Assembly (NCBI GenBank): GCA_018824085.1
Contig: JAHJHI010000034.1
Location: 62,001 to 126,000 of the forward strand
Origin: Gammaproteobacteria bacterium
GTDB lineage: Bacteria; Pseudomonadota; Gammaproteobacteria; Burkholderiales; Rhodocyclaceae
DNA: 64,000 nt
Direction: 5' to 3'
Shown here: piece by piece, positions 14,558 through 33,632 of the stretch
Numbering within the stretch: the first letter of the stretch is position 1
Layout of the letters: each line of letters opens with the position of its first letter
Notes under the pieces: model-generated
The model's database searches: none
Told to the model about the DNA's origin: nothing
Seen by the model: the letters and a program-made list of their open reading frames with translations, nothing else
Program-made: the position numbers and the translations under genes

Positions 14558-16621
14558 ATGTTGCGCACCCTGTCCAGCCGTATCGGCGAACTGCAGGGAC
14601 GACGCCTCGTCGCGGCCGTGTTGCTCGCTGCCGTGCTGGTCGGTGCGCTGTTGCTCGCCCATCAGCTGGTGGCGGATCGCCTCGTTTCGCGTGAATCGAT
14701 GCGCATGGAGTATCTGGCGTCCGCCATGCAGACGCGATTGTCGGAGGTCGTCGTGCGCGAGCCGGGACGCCTCGTGCCGGAAGTGGCGGCACTCCGGCGA
14801 CTGGGCGACCTGTCCTATATCGAAGTGCGCGACGAGGCGGGACGCGTGCTGGTTGCCGACGGCGGTCCGGCCATGCTCGGCCTGCCGCACGAGTCCATCC
14901 GGCAGGGCCTCCAATCGGCTCGCCATCATTACGATTTCCGCGTCGAGCTCGGGTTGCCCGGGCGCGGCACGGCAGTCGGGTCGGTCCGTGCCAGTGCCGA
15001 CCTCGGCGACCTTGCGGCGACGCTGACGCTGTTGCGCGAGGCGTTCTTCGGCCTGGCGCTGCTGGCGCTGGTGCTGCATGTGCTGCTCACGCGCTGGGTG
15101 CTCGGTGGTGTGCTGCGCGGCGTGACCGCCATCGAAACCCGTGCCGTTGCGCTGCGGCGTGCCGAGGCGGTTGACCCGTTGCCGGTGCAGGGCGACGACG
15201 CGCTGGCCCGGCTCACGCGGGCCTTCAACCAGATGGTGCAGGCGCTGGAAGAGCGGGTGACCGCACTGCGCAAGAGCGAGGCCCGGTTCCACGCGATCGC
15301 CGACTTCACCTTCGGAGTCGAAGCGTGGTTCAGTCCGCAGGGGCGGCTCATCTGGGTGAACCGTTCGATCGAGCGCGTGACTGGCCACAGTCCGCTCGAT
15401 TGCCTGCTCAGCGAGGATCTGGCGGGCATGCTGATCCACGAGAAGGATCGCAAGATATTCGCTGCCCGCGCGAGCGATGCGCTGGCCGGCGCAAGTGGCG
15501 AAAATTTCGAGGTACGCCTGCTGCGGCGGGACGGCGGCATCGTCTGGGTCGCGCTGAACTGGCAACCGATCTATGACGAAGTCGGCGTGTGTCTCGGTGT
15601 GCGCGTCTCGGCTGACGACATCCAGAGCCGGAAGGAAGCCGAGCTCAAGCTGCTCGACACCGTGACCGCGTTGCGCCGCGAGCAGGGCTTGCGCGACTAC
15701 TACCTCACGCGCAGCGAGGAGGAGCGCTCGAGGCTCGAGGCGCTGCTCGATCTGATCAAGCTGGGTGTGCTGTTCGTCGACCGGGATGGCCGGGCGCAAC
15801 ACGCGAACCGGATGCTGAAGACGATATGGGGACTCGGTGCGGACGAAAATCTGTCCGGCATGCGCGACACGGTGCTGATCGACCGGACGGCCGCGTTGCG
15901 CGCCGACGAGGGCACCTATCGAGAACAGGTCAAGCAGGTGCTTTCCACGCGTGCGCCGACCGACCCGCAGGACATTCCCTTGCGGGACGGGCGCATCATC
16001 CGTGAACAGTCGGCGCTCGTGCCGTCCGCCACCGCCGGGCGCTTTCTCGGACGGGTCTGGATCTACGAAGACATTACCGCTGAGCGTCGTGCGGCCGAGG
16101 CGCTGGTGCAGATCGCGGAACGCGATCCACTGACGAATCTGTACAACCGCCGGCGTTTCCACGAAGAACTTGAACGCATGATTGCCGAAGCGGCGCGCCG
16201 CAATACGAAGCTCGGCCTGTTGCTGTTCGATCTCGACGGTTTCAAGCCGGTCAACGACAAGCACGGGCATCAGGCCGGCGACGAGGTGCTCGTGACGCTG
16301 GCGCGTGAAGTCGGCGCGGTGGTCCGGCGCAACGAAATGTTCTTCCGGCTCGGCGGTGACGAGTTCGGCGTGCTCGCCCCCGACACCGACGAACCCGCCC
16401 TGACCGGACTCGCTCGCCGCATCGGCGAACGGGTCGAAGGCATGGAATTCTGTTTCGACGGGGTGGCAGCACGGGTCACGACGAGCACCGGCATCGGCAT
16501 CTATCCGGTCCATGCCGCAAGTGGCGAGGAGTTGCTCGGCGCCGCCGATGCCGCGATGTACGACGCCAAGAATGGCGGCAAGAACGCCTTCCGCATGTAT
16601 GCGCGGCAGCGCGGCGCATAG
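14558..16621 (+). CDS. Membrane diguanylate cyclase with PAS sensors
   Basis: A 687-residue signalling protein. TM1 (about 17-37), a periplasmic segment and TM2 (about 165-185) lead into a HAMP-like linker. Two PAS-like domains (about 245-370 and 395-490) and a GGDEF domain (about 520-685) follow. GGDEF at about 599-603 is intact, so it should make cyclic di-GMP. The inhibitory I-site nine residues upstream is RRNE instead of RxxD, so feedback inhibition may be weakened. AAGGGA lies before the ATG, 21 bp after argA. The input signal is unknown. Confidence 0.9.
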   Translation: MLRTLSSRIGELQGRRLVAAVLLAAVLVGALLLAHQLVADRLVSRESMRMEYLASAMQTRLSEVVVREPGRLVPEVAALRRLGDLSYIEVRDEAGRVLVADGGPAMLGLPHESIRQGLQSARHHYDFRVELGLPGRGTAVGSVRASADLGDLAATLTLLREAFFGLALLALVLHVLLTRWVLGGVLRGVTAIETRAVALRRAEAVDPLPVQGDDALARLTRAFNQMVQALEERVTALRKSEARFHAIADFTFGVEAWFSPQGRLIWVNRSIERVTGHSPLDCLLSEDLAGMLIHEKDRKIFAARASDALAGASGENFEVRLLRRDGGIVWVALNWQPIYDEVGVCLGVRVSADDIQSRKEAELKLLDTVTALRREQGLRDYYLTRSEEERSRLEALLDLIKLGVLFVDRDGRAQHANRMLKTIWGLGADENLSGMRDTVLIDRTAALRADEGTYREQVKQVLSTRAPTDPQDIPLRDGRIIREQSALVPSATAGRFLGRVWIYEDITAERRAAEALVQIAERDPLTNLYNRRRFHEELERMIAEAARRNTKLGLLLFDLDGFKPVNDKHGHQAGDEVLVTLAREVGAVVRRNEMFFRLGGDEFGVLAPDTDEPALTGLARRIGERVEGMEFCFDGVAARVTTSTGIGIYPVHAASGEELLGAADAAMYDAKNGGKNAFRMYARQRGA

Positions 16622-19311: not shown

Positions 19312-20406
19312 TCATCCGGCCGGATCGTCGCGGTGGACGAGGGCCTTGTAGGCGAGGTGAGGCAACAGCTGATGCAGCGGCATTCTAAGCCAGTGGCTGC
19401 GCGCATAGAGCATCTGCCGGCGCACGCGGCGCCAGACCGAGTCGCTGCTCGGATGTTGCGGGTACATCGCGGCGTCGATCAGGTGATCGCTCAGCGCTCC
19501 GTTCCATCGGGATGACAGGCGGCGCTCGCACTCGTTGCGCAGGCTTTCGGGAATCCGGGTGCCGAAGACGCGGTGTGCGAAGTGCACCGCCAGCAGCACC
19601 GGGTACTCGAGTTGCTGGGTGCGTGCGCGTGGCAGCAACGCTTCCTGGAATGCCGGATCCGCGGACAGCTCGCTCAGCAGGGCATGCAGGTCGTACAGAT
19701 CGCGCAGTCCCTTCTGCAGCTCACCGAAAAAAAGGTGGCAGGCCGAGTGCATCACCATGTCGACCGGGGACAGCACGTGGAATACATCCGGGCAGCCGTC
19801 AATGCGCACCGGGCGCGCGTCGGCGATGAGCTGCGCCGCATCCGGATGGTGGCCGGATGTCGGCGGCACGATCGTATGGTGCAGATCGATTACCGTGCCG
19901 CGCGAGCGATGTTCGATCGGCGGCAGTTCGTGCATCCACTCCCGGTAGTAGCGCTGGTCATACGCATTCAGGTGGGTCGGCAGCCAGCCGCGGCGATAGA
20001 GCGCGCTTTCGGCCGCGTTCAGCACGTCCTTCGCGACCATCAGGTCGATGTCATTGAATACACGGGACCGCCCGGCGGGCAAGTCGGCGGCCGCATACGC
20101 GGCCCCCTTGAGCAGCAGCACCGGCTGGCCGATGTCCTGCAGCGCCTCGCCGATGACCGCGAGTTCATTCAACAGCGATGACTTGTGCAGCGCCGCCATG
20201 CGCAATGCGGCGTCCAGATGAAAGCGCACGGCGGCAGGCACGCGCTCGAGGCGGTCGCTGGCGCCCAGCACCTCGGCCACCTGGCCGAGCATGTCGCTGG
20301 TGCGGGCCTGTCCGATCAGGGCTTCCCAGTCGTGCGCGGTGAAGCTGTCACTGAATGACGGGTTGGCGAGCGTTCTCGCCAGGTGCGTGTCCGTGTGTCG
20401 ACTCAT
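19312..20406 (-). CDS. Nucleotidyltransferase-fold protein of HPr-rel-A type cluster
   Basis: A 364-residue protein of the uncharacterised nucleotidyltransferase family (NTP_transf_5 type). The characteristic pattern is a KG at 100-101, then an Arg-rich loop and DIDLMV (Asp119 and Asp121, putative metal ligands). Related proteins occur beside HprK-like kinases in lasso-peptide and HPr-rel-A loci. The ATG at 20406 begins the conserved region although the frame continues upstream. It is 46 bp after the kinase gene. Likely activity is transfer of a nucleotidyl group onto a phosphate or peptide; the substrate is unknown. Confidence 0.8.
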   Translation of the reverse strand: MSRHTDTHLARTLANPSFSDSFTAHDWEALIGQARTSDMLGQVAEVLGASDRLERVPAAVRFHLDAALRMAALHKSSLLNELAVIGEALQDIGQPVLLLKGAAYAAADLPAGRSRVFNDIDLMVAKDVLNAAESALYRRGWLPTHLNAYDQRYYREWMHELPPIEHRSRGTVIDLHHTIVPPTSGHHPDAAQLIADARPVRIDGCPDVFHVLSPVDMVMHSACHLFFGELQKGLRDLYDLHALLSELSADPAFQEALLPRARTQQLEYPVLLAVHFAHRVFGTRIPESLRNECERRLSSRWNGALSDHLIDAAMYPQHPSSDSVWRRVRRQMLYARSHWLRMPLHQLLPHLAYKALVHRDDPAG

Positions 20407-20452
20407 GGTGTGATCGGTTGGCGTGCCGCCGGCCCGACGCGCCGGGCGCGGT

Positions 20453-21403
20453 TCAGGCGGGACGCGCGCAGAGTGCTTCGAGTGTCGGCACGATCTGGTC
20501 CAGGGACCCGTAGCGCGCAGTGTAACCGTCGCAGGCATCCACCAGCCGGGCCATCGCTTCAAACCCGGTCGCACCGAGGCGCGGATAGTTGAACGCATTG
20601 CCGACCAGTTGCATGAAGGTCTGTGCCCGGCCCATGGCTTCCACTTCGCATGCGCTGCCGGCACCGAACTTGGGAAACAGTATCCAGCGTGGTTGCACGG
20701 TGGCCAGCGCGGCGTCGACGCTGGCCCGGGGCGGTCGCATGTGCGCGACGGTTCCCTTGGCGGTGTCGTGCGCGACCGGGCCCATGACGATTTCGCCGGG
20801 CAGGCGGCGCACCACATCGATGGACTGGTTCTTCAGGCTGATCGGTCTTGGCAGCGGCGTGAGCAAGCCATCTTCGAGACCGACCAGCGCCAGTTCGTCC
20901 GACAGCAGCCGCCAGCCTTTCAGCGCAAGCCCGGCGCACAGGGTGCTCTTTCCGGAACCGGGAGGTGCAGCCATGATGAGACCGGCACCGTTTCGCTCAA
21001 GAACGGCCGCATGGATGATGAGGTAGTGCTGAGCGTGGTTCGTGAACACCCAGTTCAGGCCCCATTCCAGCATTGCGACGGCCTGCTGGCCGGGAAGCGG
21101 CTTGAACGGCTGCATGCCTTCGAAGCGGAACACGACCTGCGGGCGGACAAACCGGCGCAGGCCGCCGGTCCCGGTCAGCTCGACCGGAAAGTCACAGAAG
21201 TCGTCGTCGCCGGCGACCGGATAGTCGCCGTAAAGAGTTTCGATGCCGCGCGCCAGCGGGCGCAGGTCGGAGCGTATGCCTGCGACGAAACGGCCGAAGC
21301 GCAGGCGCAGGCCGGCGTCGCTGTGCAAGCGTGCTTCCACTTCGCCGGTCGAAAGATCGGCCAGTGTCTGGACGGCATCAGCGGGCATCTGAAGAGGGGG
21401 CAC
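20453..21403 (-). CDS. HprK-related kinase A
   Basis: A 316-residue kinase of the HprK-related family found with small PqqD-like proteins. The P-loop APPGSGKST is at 146-154 and is preceded by HAAVLE. A downstream LLSDE motif (about 166-170) corresponds to the acidic catalytic loop of HPr kinase. The first 120 residues are a family-specific domain. True HPr kinase phosphorylates a serine of HPr; no HPr gene is nearby, so another serine- or peptide-linked substrate is likely. It follows the PqqD-like gene by 14 bp. Confidence 0.85.
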   Translation of the reverse strand: MPPLQMPADAVQTLADLSTGEVEARLHSDAGLRLRFGRFVAGIRSDLRPLARGIETLYGDYPVAGDDDFCDFPVELTGTGGLRRFVRPQVVFRFEGMQPFKPLPGQQAVAMLEWGLNWVFTNHAQHYLIIHAAVLERNGAGLIMAAPPGSGKSTLCAGLALKGWRLLSDELALVGLEDGLLTPLPRPISLKNQSIDVVRRLPGEIVMGPVAHDTAKGTVAHMRPPRASVDAALATVQPRWILFPKFGAGSACEVEAMGRAQTFMQLVGNAFNYPRLGATGFEAMARLVDACDGYTARYGSLDQIVPTLEALCARPA

Positions 21404-21417
21404 GCGGAGCGGTTGTG

Positions 21418-21675
21418 TCAGCCTGCGCGGCGAACGATGCCATGGTCGGCAAGCGCCGACAGCAGCGCCCCCATTTCCTGCGCGTCGGTTCCGGCGCCTG
21501 CGCTGAGCTCACGGGTGCCGGTCGGTGCTTTCATGAGGACAGTCACGACGCCGCCGGCGATTGCCGACAGCATCGTTGTGGTCGATTCGCGCGCATTGAA
21601 GACGACGCTGCCGTCAGGCCAGTTGCGTATCGAAATGGCGTCGGGCGTCACGAGCGCCCACTGGCTGTCCGGCAC
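21418..21675 (-). CDS. PqqD-like peptide chaperone of HPr-rel-A type system
   Basis: An 85-residue PqqD-family protein, the fold that acts as a recognition element for precursor peptides in RiPP pathways. It has the pattern of an N-terminal beta hairpin (WALVTPDAISIRNWPDGSVVFN), a short helix, then the C-terminal helices (MGALLSALADHGIV). It sits three bases downstream of the secreted-protein gene and 14 bp before the kinase, so the three are almost certainly translated from one mRNA. It likely delivers a peptide or the secreted protein to the kinase. Confidence 0.8.
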   Translation of the reverse strand: MPDSQWALVTPDAISIRNWPDGSVVFNARESTTTMLSAIAGGVVTVLMKAPTGTRELSAGAGTDAQEMGALLSALADHGIVRRAG

Positions 21676-21678
21676 GAA

Positions 21679-22338
21679 TCAGCCGGCGGCGCCGTTGCAC
21701 CACGTGCCGGATGCGTAGACATCAACGCGATCCTTGAACGCATTGAGCGAATTCACGCCGCCGCCGAACGCGGTCTGGAACTCGGAAATGACGCTTGCGG
21801 GCGATTGCATGCCGATGACCGGGTAGCGGCTGCCGTAGAACTGCGCATTGAGCAGCGCGGCGACAGCGTGGAAGGCGACCGTCTTCATCGCGTTGACCTT
21901 GCTGGTCGGGCACCAACCGCCAGACATGCTCTTGTCGTAGACGGTGACGGCCTTGTCGATCGCGTTCTTCAGCGTGTTGTTCGCAGCCGGCTTGAAGAAA
22001 TTGACGCCGAATACCTGGTTGAAGTATTGGCCCTGGGCATAGGTCAGCGGAATGAAATCCGGGTTGGTCCAGACGGACGTGCCGTTCGAATTGCCCCAGA
22101 ATCCGGGGCTGCAGCCGCAGGGGCGCGGCGCGCCTTCGCGGGACAGGTTGCCGGAAGCGAGTTCCGAACCCGTGCAGGTGCCCCAGGTACTGGTACCGAA
22201 AGCGGAACGACTGGCAATGGACAGCAGTACGCCCGCACCCGCAGCACCTCCACGGGTGATGCGGCGACGCGCGGCGTCGACCTGATCCTGCTGCGGCGTT
22301 GCAGCGTCCGGGTTTGAGAGGTTGTCGTGCTCGTTCAT
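21679..22338 (-). CDS. Secreted Cys-rich protein, putative substrate of the HPr-rel-A cluster
   Basis: A 219-residue protein. Residues 24-26 (RRR) and the following hydrophobic stretch 30-48 ending SAFG look like a twin-arginine signal. The mature part has Cys at 55, 74, 76, 143 and 214. It carries a CSPGFWGN motif (76-83), reminiscent of the CTPGYWKxH segment of secreted proteins, and FHAVAALLNA (156-165) near a YPV turn. No enzymatic motif is visible. As first gene of the PqqD/kinase/nucleotidyltransferase cluster it is the natural candidate for the modified product. Function unknown. Confidence 0.75.
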   Translation of the reverse strand: MNEHDNLSNPDAATPQQDQVDAARRRITRGGAAGAGVLLSIASRSAFGTSTWGTCTGSELASGNLSREGAPRPCGCSPGFWGNSNGTSVWTNPDFIPLTYAQGQYFNQVFGVNFFKPAANNTLKNAIDKAVTVYDKSMSGGWCPTSKVNAMKTVAFHAVAALLNAQFYGSRYPVIGMQSPASVISEFQTAFGGGVNSLNAFKDRVDVYASGTWCNGAAG

Positions 22339-31913: not shown

Positions 31914-33632
31914 TCACTTCGGCAGCTTGAACACCCAGATCACACCGCCCTGGGGAACCGTGGTCTTCTGGTCGAGCACCGCGTTGAACGCACCCTGCAT
32001 GCGCTCGGCATCGACACCCCAGCCGGCCTGCACCGCGACGTACTGTTCGCCGTCGACCTCGAACGTGGAAGGCACGCCGGTCACGCCCGAGTTGGTCGGG
32101 AATTCCCACAGCACCTTGCCGTTGGAGGCGTTGAAGGCGCGGAACTTGCGGTCGTTCGTACCGCCGCCGAACACCAGGTTGCCGCCGGTCGTGAGCAGCG
32201 GTCCCCAGTTCATTTCCGGATAGGTGTGGGTCCACACCTTCTTGCCGGTCTTGAGATCCCAGGCCTGCACTTCGCCGATATGCGTCTTCGATTCGGGCGT
32301 CATGCGCACGTTGGTGAGCACGTTCTCGATCGACACGCCGAGGTAGAGGTCGCCCTTGTTGTACTTCACCGGCTCGCCGGTCAGCTCCGAGCACAGGTTG
32401 TTGTGCGCGGGGATGTAGAGCAGGCCGGTCTGCGGGTTGTAGGCCTCGGGCGGCCAGTCCTTGCCGCCCCACAGCGACGGGCAGAAGTTCACCGTCTTGC
32501 CGGTGCCGGGCGTGTGCGCCGGGTCGTATTCCGGGCGGCCGGTCTTCGGATCCAGGCTCTTGAACACGTTCTGCGTCACGAAAGGCCAGGCGTCGACGTA
32601 GTTCACCGGACCGTTCGTGCGTTCGAGCATCCACAGGTAACCGTTGCGTCCCGCGTGCACCAGCGACTTGAACTTCTTGCCCTTGTGTTCGAGATCGATC
32701 AGCAGCGGTGCGGACACTTCGTCCCAGTCCCACGCGTCGTTGTGGTGATACTGGTGGTAACCCTTGAGCTTGCCGGTGTCGACGTCGAGCGCGAGCACGG
32801 AGTTCGCGTACAGGTTGTCGCCCGCGCGCGTGTCCGGCATCCACGGGCCGGCGTTGCCGACGCCCCAGTACGCGAGGTTGGTGTCCGGGTCGTAGTTGCC
32901 GGTGATCCAGACCGAGCCGCCGCCGCGCTTGTAGGTGTCGCCCGGCCAGGTGTCGCCGCCGGGCTCGCCCGGTCCTGCGATGGTGTAGGTCTTCCAGGCT
33001 TCCTTGCCGGTTTCCGCATCGAACGCGGCGATGAAGCCGCGGATGCCGTACTCGCCACCGGAGCTGCCGACCATGATCTTGCCGCGCGCGGCAAGCGGCG
33101 CCAGCGTCATGTAGTAGCCGGACTTCCAGTCGGCCACTGCGGTCTTCCAGACTTCCTTGCCGGTCTTCGCATCCAGCGCCACGAGGAAGGCGTCGGTGGT
33201 GGCGATGTAGACGCGGTCGCCGTAGAGGGCGACGCCACGGTTGGTCGGGTGCAGTTGCTGCAGTTCGTCCGGAATGGTTTTCTTGTAGCGCCAGATCTCG
33301 CGGCCGCTCTTCGCCTCAAGACAGATGACCTGGTTGTTCGGCGTGCTCACGAACATGTAGCCGTTGTTGACGATGGGCGGCGCCTGATGCCCCTCGTTCA
33401 TGCCGGTCGAAAATGCCCAGGCAAGCTCCAGCTTGGCGACGTTCTTGTCTGTCACCTGCTTGAGCGGGCTGTAGCCCCAGCCGGCGTAGTTGGCGCGATA
33501 CATCAGCCAGTTCTGCGCTTCGGGCTTGACCAGCCGGGCGTCGGTGACCGGGGTGTAGGCCGGCAATGCGCCGGCCACGAGCGGGGCGAGCAGTGCCGCT
33601 GCGAGAACGGTCCGCTTGATCATGGTTGTCAT
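31914..33632 (-). CDS. PQQ-dependent alcohol dehydrogenase, lanthanide-type signature
   Basis: A 572-residue periplasmic quinoprotein with signal peptide (about 1-25) and eight-bladed propeller. Metal ligands align with methanol dehydrogenase: Glu194 (GGEYG), Asn260 (GVGNAGPW) and catalytic Asp302 in AWDWD. Asp304, two residues on, is the extra acid typical of lanthanide-dependent XoxF/PedH enzymes. The vicinal Cys-Cys normally near residue 127 is absent (LQQLHPTNRGV). AGGAGG at the ATG (33632) decides the start; a long upstream extension of the frame is not coding. Likely substrate is a short alcohol or diol. It has no cytochrome neighbour; a Rieske gene lies upstream. Confidence 0.92.
   Translation of the reverse strand: MTTMIKRTVLAAALLAPLVAGALPAYTPVTDARLVKPEAQNWLMYRANYAGWGYSPLKQVTDKNVAKLELAWAFSTGMNEGHQAPPIVNNGYMFVSTPNNQVICLEAKSGREIWRYKKTIPDELQQLHPTNRGVALYGDRVYIATTDAFLVALDAKTGKEVWKTAVADWKSGYYMTLAPLAARGKIMVGSSGGEYGIRGFIAAFDAETGKEAWKTYTIAGPGEPGGDTWPGDTYKRGGGSVWITGNYDPDTNLAYWGVGNAGPWMPDTRAGDNLYANSVLALDVDTGKLKGYHQYHHNDAWDWDEVSAPLLIDLEHKGKKFKSLVHAGRNGYLWMLERTNGPVNYVDAWPFVTQNVFKSLDPKTGRPEYDPAHTPGTGKTVNFCPSLWGGKDWPPEAYNPQTGLLYIPAHNNLCSELTGEPVKYNKGDLYLGVSIENVLTNVRMTPESKTHIGEVQAWDLKTGKKVWTHTYPEMNWGPLLTTGGNLVFGGGTNDRKFRAFNASNGKVLWEFPTNSGVTGVPSTFEVDGEQYVAVQAGWGVDAERMQGAFNAVLDQKTTVPQGGVIWVFKLPK

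What the first reader, a model, noticed from the sequence alone, without database searches (positions are those of the whole stretch)
19312..22338. HPr-rel-A type modification cluster with an adjacent secreted candidate substrate
Four minus-strand genes run almost without gaps: a Tat-type secreted Cys-rich protein, a PqqD-like protein, an HprK-related kinase and a nucleotidyltransferase-fold protein. PqqD folds recognise precursor peptides. HprK-like kinases and nucleotidyltransferases are known from lasso-peptide tailoring, where a C-terminal serine is phosphorylated. No HPr, PQQ or radical-SAM gene is present. The simplest reading is a post-translational phosphorylation/nucleotidylation system whose target is the secreted protein or a part of it. 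The order and 3-14 bp spacing are seen; the biochemistry is inferred.
Basis: partly seen in the sequence, partly recalled or inferred. Interest (0 to 1): 0.8.

Follow-up and report, generated by a model that had tools for sequence, protein, structure and literature searches.

The report
Kinase cassette with its exported target
Beside an uncharacterised bacterial kinase, peptide-chaperone and nucleotidyltransferase there is almost always a protein that carries an export signal followed by a conserved serine motif, which makes it the likely, so far unnamed, target of this modification system.

Summary
The four-gene order is real. In 102 of 103 loci of this kinase family (99 of 100 distinct) a homologue of the secreted protein lies in the cassette; the one miss is a contig end. 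A broader draw gave 25 of 26, the miss again near a contig end. Among 61 relatives, all 23 secreted-protein matches sit at the kinase locus; none is in the 37 genomes without a kinase over the cut-off. No Pfam or NCBIfam family covers the protein. It keeps a twin-arginine leader and then C-x(1-6)-[ST]-x3-S, usually ...SGNxS, in 115 of 127 sequences, against 48 of 727 later windows of the same proteins. Seven precursors, all in one deep kinase clade, show a C-terminal serine motif instead. In Methyloversatilis the cassette is swapped as a block at one site. Exosortase genes accompany it: 24 of 24 versus 11 of 37 genomes, and 25 of 27 versus 67 of 247. Best reading: a dedicated system that modifies serine of a Tat-exported protein before export. 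The chemistry is inferred, not shown. PqqD is absent from one clade.

The parts
21679..22338 (-). Exported candidate substrate (219 aa): Tat-type leader, RR at residues 24-25; motif C55-x2-S58-x3-S62-G-N-x-S66; alpha-helical domain modelled with confidence from about residue 71
22129..22176 (-). Codons of residues 55-70 of the candidate substrate, holding the serine motif CTGSELASGNLSREGA (S58 and S62 nearly invariant)
   Evidence: coordinates counted from the ATG at 22338
21418..21675 (-). PqqD-like peptide-binding protein (85 aa), HPr-rel-A type, below the curated cut-off
20453..21403 (-). HprK-related kinase A (316 aa) with H131, K152 (Walker A), D169, E170 invariant in the 22 aligned sequences
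19312..20406 (-). NTP_transf_5 nucleotidyltransferase (364 aa); LKGxAY, D119, D121 and D174 invariant in 61 aligned sequences; model resembles nucleotidyltransferases

Best explanation
The four genes form one functional cassette: a dedicated modifier set and its single substrate. Proposed order of events: (1) the secreted protein is made in the cytoplasm with a long-headed twin-arginine leader; (2) the PqqD-like protein holds that leader and presents the segment behind it; (3) the HprK-like kinase phosphorylates a serine of the conserved motif (S58 and/or S62 in the window protein); (4) the nucleotidyltransferase-fold enzyme adds a second group, a nucleotide or a sugar, on the phosphate; (5) the modified protein is exported by Tat, which allows steps that need cytoplasmic NTP to happen first, and acts at the cell surface, probably with the exosortase/exopolysaccharide system. 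Shown here: the linkage, the co-occurrence, the RR leader, the serine motif, conserved catalytic residues and exchange of the cassette as a block. Inferred: that the secreted protein is the substrate, the acceptor residue, the chemistry, the order of steps, the Tat route and the surface role.
For: Secreted homologue in 102 of 103 kinase loci, the miss being a contig end; 25 of 26 class-wide loci, the miss with only 597 bases upstream. Whole genomes: 23 of 61 match, all at the kinase locus, one per genome, 0 of 37 genomes without a kinase over the cut-off. It stays in the cassette when the order changes (five loci downstream of the kinase, one between two kinase copies). RR columns Arg in 102 of 102 and the two serine columns Ser in 97 of 102 each. 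C-x(1-6)-[ST]-x3-S in 115 of 127, against 48 of 727 control windows; 114 of 118 outside the class B kinase clade. Domain-only relatives outside the cassette have no RR or KR in their first 70 residues (4 of 4 with a visible start). The seven class B precursors fall in one kinase clade. In Methyloversatilis the cassette proteins are 22-51% identical between types while flanking proteins are 77-100% identical (seven representatives). The kinase keeps H, K and D of HPr kinase; the nucleotidyltransferase keeps its acidic residues and fold. Lasso peptides give a precedent: PadeK phosphorylates serine, PsmN acts on the phosphoserine (passages of PMC9266682).
Against: No biochemical data. PqqD is missing from five Methyloversatilis genomes that keep the other three genes. 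Generic Tat models match few members: PF10518 1 of 70 at E 0.01, TIGR01409 0 of 70, so a Sec-type or membrane-anchored signal is not excluded. The fourth catalytic residue is Glu where HPr kinase has Asp. The conserved serines could serve folding or binding. L110 and L128 have neither serine motif, and lie outside the class B clade; L185, inside it, is a short frame that matches the class A pattern. Exosortase genes also occur in many genomes without the cassette, and two cassette genomes, G112 and G117, lack them.
Confidence: 0.6

Rival explanations
1. The kinase and nucleotidyltransferase modify something else, such as an exopolysaccharide or lipid precursor, and the secreted protein is a partner that acts outside the cell on the same product.
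For: 24 of 24 and 25 of 27 cassette genomes carry exosortase; 22 of 77 named loci hold a homologue of a polysaccharide chain-length protein, identified in L105 as part of an XrtA cluster.
Against: PqqD-like proteins are known as peptide binders (recalled), the serine motif and leader are the most conserved parts of the partner, and the class B precursors fall in one kinase clade.
Confidence: 0.15
2. A polymorphic toxin, bacteriocin or self-recognition cassette: the exported protein is the active agent and its modification controls activity or immunity.
For: Whole-cassette exchange at one site with strong divergence among species of one genus; the nucleotidyltransferase model resembles MenT4 and TglT (weak, E 0.012 and 0.025).
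Against: No further gene is common to most loci, though immunity genes were not searched for as such; one copy per genome in all 13 Methyloversatilis genomes.
Confidence: 0.12
3. A kinase-nucleotidyltransferase toxin-antitoxin pair in which the kinase silences the nucleotidyltransferase.
For: Foldseek places the nucleotidyltransferase near TglT (6j7r, E 0.025), a toxin co-expressed with TakA according to the entry title.
Against: The kinase is HPr-kinase-like; a pair would not need PqqD and an exported protein in nearly every locus.
Confidence: 0.05
4. The kinase is a regulator acting on HPr.
For: Distant homology to HPr kinase (E 0.001).
Against: The genome has its own HPr(Ser) kinase elsewhere (G000:C40, 326.6 bits against a cut-off of 240); no HPr-like gene is among the cassette or the eight flanking genes scanned.
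Confidence: 0.03

Closest known systems
HPr-rel-A system (NCBIfam TIGR04352 kinase and TIGR04353 PqqD)
   Same: Kinase over cut-off; PqqD-like gene adjacent.
   Different: NCBIfam names a kinase and a chaperone; no model in Pfam or NCBIfam covers the exported partner (70 members scanned). The window PqqD is under its cut-off.
Lasso-peptide tailoring kinase and nucleotidyltransferase (PadeK, ThcoK, PsmK/PsmN)
   Same: HPr-kinase-like enzyme with a conserved H-K-D core, a nucleotidyltransferase, and a conserved serine in the precursor (for the lasso side; here).
   Different: The candidate target is an exported protein of about 220 residues, not a lasso peptide; the serines follow the export signal rather than ending the chain. 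No asparagine-synthetase-like or transglutaminase-like match among the flanking window genes scanned.
HPr kinase/phosphorylase HprK
   Same: P-loop kinase core: H, Walker A K, D.
   Different: Asp to Glu at the fourth position; only the core (profile 116-209) aligns in the best match; another gene partner.

Membership tests
HPr-rel-A system | HprK-related kinase A over the curated cut-off | tested here: met
   408.8 bits, cut-off 200
HPr-rel-A system | PqqD-family chaperone TIGR04353 over the cut-off | tested here: inconclusive
   26.2 bits, cut-off 35; same-slot homologues of G001, G004, G005 and G010 pass; the profile of A5, which contains the window copy, finds it at E 6.4e-17
Lasso-peptide phosphorylation cluster | Acceptor is the C-terminal Ser of the precursor | tested here: not met
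   Window protein ends ...CNGAAG
Lasso-peptide phosphorylation cluster | Asparagine-synthetase-like cyclase and transglutaminase-like protease nearby | tested here: not met
   Pfam scan of the four cassette genes and eight flanking genes between 16.6 and 30.4 kb shows neither
Lasso-type kinase | His-Lys-Asp-Asp catalytic set | tested here: inconclusive
   H131, K152, D169 invariant in 22; the fourth is Glu170
Tat substrate | Twin arginine before a mildly hydrophobic stretch | tested here: met
   Arg in both columns in 102 of 102; RR found in 127 of 127, though that script looked for RR or KR; best 15-residue hydropathy mean 1.56. Generic Tat models rarely match
Tat substrate | Export through TatABC | not testable with these tools
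   needs an export assay
NTP_transf_5 | Pfam gathering score | tested here: met
   180.1 bits, cut-off 31.2

The most novel reading that the evidence does not exclude
A widespread class of post-translational modification in which an HprK-like kinase and a nucleotidyltransferase build a phospho-linked group (nucleotide or sugar) on serine of a Tat-exported surface protein, guided by a PqqD-type chaperone that reads the export leader, as part of the exosortase/exopolysaccharide surface programme; different kinase clades read different serine sites.
Probability: 0.35. Interest if true: 0.88.

Novelty: new variant of a known kind. Interest (0 to 1): 0.74.

Why it matters
The HPr-rel-A genes carry names in databases, but a search of the held papers for those names found none. 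Naming the exported partner and a serine motif turns an orphan kinase into a system with a testable substrate. If right, it joins RiPP-style leader reading to Tat export, a route not apparent in the paper listings seen here, and adds a candidate part to the exosortase surface programme of many environmental Proteobacteria.

Tried and rejected
Lasso-peptide membership: rejected, because the acceptor position and neighbouring genes do not fit. HPr as target: made unlikely by a separate HPr kinase in the genome. Known fold for the secreted protein: the model has mean pLDDT 71.8 and no PDB match better than E 2.3; a sequence search of PDB gave only two hits, at E 0.33 and 0.79. A PDB sequence search with the nucleotidyltransferase profile found nothing; Foldseek on its model gave nucleotidyltransferases from E 0.005 upwards, none at 0.001, with low TM-scores. 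A PqqD elsewhere in the five genomes that lack it: no convincing match (one E 1.8e-4 hit in G008 inside a 296-aa frame). A constant neighbour beyond the cassette: none in most loci; the polysaccharide chain-length homologue in 22 of 77. The first neighbourhood script stopped with an error after 12 loci; the later counts come from the profile searches.

Of the 103 loci, three are the same genomes twice (L060, L062, L126) and were dropped from the residue counts. Alignments A3 (53 rows) and A4 (70 rows) leave out class B and other divergent rows that I dropped by hand or script, so their invariant columns flatter the motif; the fuller counts are those. Of the 12 sequences without the pattern, L101 was missed because the script chose the wrong RR (the motif is visible), L179 has one extra residue between the serines, L110 and L128 have no serine motif, L044 is unassigned, and seven are class B. 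For the tree I labelled L185 class B by its leader, but its short frame matches the class A pattern, so I count seven class B precursors. The group line (support 100) compares labelled groups only; the fork I cite is the nine-row one in the drawing, support 97. The loose serine pattern is not specific by itself: among five domain-only relatives it also occurs in three, in L206 within 60 residues before the domain, in a Ser/Asp run. The Fisher values take genomes as independent, which they are not.
Full report
What is there. On the minus strand, 22338 down to 19312, lie four ORFs with gaps of 3, 14 and 46 bp. In order: a 219-aa protein with an RR leader; an 85-aa PqqD-like protein; a 316-aa kinase of family HprK_rel_A (408.8 bits, cut-off 200); and a 364-aa NTP_transf_5 protein (180.1 bits). 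The genus is very likely Methyloversatilis: G008, listed as same genus, has contig C21 of 89,780 bases, the length of the contig of L126, titled Methyloversatilis. Flanking genes are PhoU and ribose-5-phosphate isomerase (rpiA) on one side and a lipoyl dihydrolipoamide dehydrogenase (lpd) and other pyruvate dehydrogenase parts on the other, by Pfam; the short gene names are mine.

Does the secreted protein belong with the kinase? I gathered kinase loci in two ways: 23 loci over the family cut-off from relatives, the window itself left out, and the best 80 from named genome contigs. A profile grown from the window protein found a homologue in 102 of 103 (99 of 100 distinct); the miss, L102, has about 350 bases before the kinase match. 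In 97 loci it lies upstream of a kinase, in five downstream, one of these on the other strand. An even draw of 274 genomes of the class gave 26 further loci over the cut-off; 25 have a match, and L190, the miss, has only 597 bases upstream. In some of these 25 the match is weak (E 1e-3 to 1e-8) and covers little more than the leader (see class B). In 61 whole genomes the profile matched 23, each once and each at the kinase locus; all 23 are among the 24 kinase genomes; the 24th, G029, has a weaker local match (E 4e-12). In the 274-genome draw 30 genomes match: 23 of the 27 kinase genomes and 7 of the other 247. The four kinase genomes without a match are G151, G194 and G273 (class B precursors) and G319 (contig end). 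The seven others are of two kinds: longer secreted proteins that share only the later domain (G140, G144, G159, G275 = L206, L207, L209, L210; a like one, L208, is in kinase genome G075), and very short Tat-leader proteins (G161, G244, G096), the first two beside HprK-like kinases below the cut-off. Of the five domain-only proteins, the four with a visible start have no RR or KR in their first 70 residues.

What is conserved in it. The proteins are otherwise very divergent: mean column identity is 15% in A3 (53 chosen sequences) and 13% in A4 (70 chosen sequences). In the fuller alignment of 102 non-duplicate sequences both RR columns are Arg in 102 and the two serine columns (S58, S62 of the window protein) are Ser in 97 each. 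The typical form is C-x-(S/P)-S-G-x-x-S-G-N-x-S, then C-x-G-x-(S/T)-P-G-(Y/F)-W. C-x(1-6)-[ST]-x3-S is found behind the leader in 115 of 127 sequences, against 48 of 727 windows further along the same proteins. The model of the window protein is alpha-helical; residues 1-70 have low confidence (block means 48-58), so the motif lies in a segment that is not modelled reliably and may be a loose linker between leader and domain. No solved fold matches. No Pfam or NCBIfam family covers it: of 70 members only single weak matches.

A second precursor class. Seven loci (L050, L053, L137, L176, L187, L192, L194) have an RR leader protein in the cassette without the class A motif, but with a C-terminal Ser followed by a hydrophobic residue in all seven. 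In the kinase tree of 127 rows (quick method, midpoint root) these seven fall in one fork of nine rows, support 97, together with L044 (precursor unassigned) and L185 (a 77-residue frame that matches the class A pattern). Outside this fork 114 of 118 precursors have the class A pattern; the others are L101 (present, missed by the script), L179 (one residue longer), L110 and L128 (absent). So the serine site changes with the kinase clade, as expected of enzyme and substrate. Seven short C-termini are thin evidence for the motif itself.

Cassette exchange. In all 12 other same-genus genomes the cassette sits between lpd and rpiA as in the window. Between cassette types (seven representatives compared) kinase, nucleotidyltransferase and precursor differ together, 22-51% identity, precursors partly over short stretches, while Lpd, RpiA and PhoU are 77-100% identical. 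G012 and G003 share PhoU at 100%, RpiA at 91% and Lpd at 90%, but kinase at 45%, nucleotidyltransferase at 41% and precursor at 22% (L040 and L042). Five of these genomes (G002, G003, G006, G008, G011) lack PqqD; their kinases form one clade (support 100 in the drawing). L052 (G019) also misses, but has a weak trace of PqqD in the slot (E 0.36). PqqD is therefore helpful or replaceable, not essential.

Enzymes. The kinase keeps H131, K152, D169 and E170 in 22 of 22 aligned sequences; a profile match to HPr kinase (E 0.00096) aligns H, K and D with HPr kinase, with Glu for the second Asp. Lasso kinases use His-Lys-Asp-Asp (PMC9266682, passages). The nucleotidyltransferase keeps LKGxAY, D119, D121 and D174 in 61 sequences; its model (pLDDT 93.7) resembles nucleotidyltransferases such as ANT(2'') and LnuA (Foldseek E 0.016 to 0.1 for these; best of all 0.0046, a viral polyadenylate synthase; probability up to 1.0, low TM-scores). 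I recall, not from a call, that G..DxD is the family's active-site pattern. The same review reports that PsmK phosphorylates the C-terminal Ser of pseudomycoidin and PsmN adds one or two hexoses on the phosphoserine, or possibly a nucleotide first. This is the closest precedent for steps 3 and 4.

Exosortase link. Exosortase (PF09721, E up to 0.001) is in 24 of 24 cassette genomes and 11 of 37 others among relatives, and in 25 of 27 against 67 of 247 in the class draw; G112 and G117 lack it. In 22 of 77 named loci a frame similar to a polysaccharide chain-length protein lies some 5 kb upstream; in L105, the one checked, it is TIGR03007, with TIGR03018 and TIGR03027 nearby, all XrtA system families, and a PEP-CTERM protein follows the cassette. 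Many of these loci are Oxalobacteraceae, so the 22 are not independent. The link suggests a role at the cell surface; it does not show one.

Literature. Searches for the family names, for PqqD with HprK and nucleotidyltransferase and for exosortase with HPr kinase found no paper; broader ones gave listings in which I saw no title or abstract describing this system. Only passages of PMC9266682 were read. The library holds open-licence papers only, so this is weak evidence of novelty.

Verdict. The substrate claim is now well supported by comparative evidence; the chemistry stays a hypothesis with a concrete target site (Ser58/Ser62).

Noticed in passing
L203 4579-4746 and 6212-6388; L205 1946-2206: Very short (56-87 aa) Tat-leader proteins beside HprK-like kinases below the TIGR04352 cut-off; the one in L205 contains SNLSGN, like the class A motif.
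   Followed up: partly
L196 2539-2886 and 3128-3451; L195 7566-9143: Proteins with a leader ending in PVVDxVxLPAHA near HprK-like kinases; the two in L196 carry long Thr runs, possible phosphate or sugar acceptors.
   Followed up: no
L206-L210: The CxPxYWK ... AVAALLNA domain also occurs near the end of longer proteins without an RR leader where the start is visible.
   Followed up: partly
L136 and L103, L106: L136 has two kinase/nucleotidyltransferase sets around one precursor; L103 and L106 have two precursors in tandem behind one set.
   Followed up: no
window 31914-33632 (-): A PQQ-type dehydrogenase (PF01011, E 1.8e-82) about 10 kb from the cassette.
   Followed up: no
window 14558-16621 (+): PAS-GGDEF protein, a likely diguanylate cyclase (PF00990), about 3 kb beyond the cassette.
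   Followed up: no
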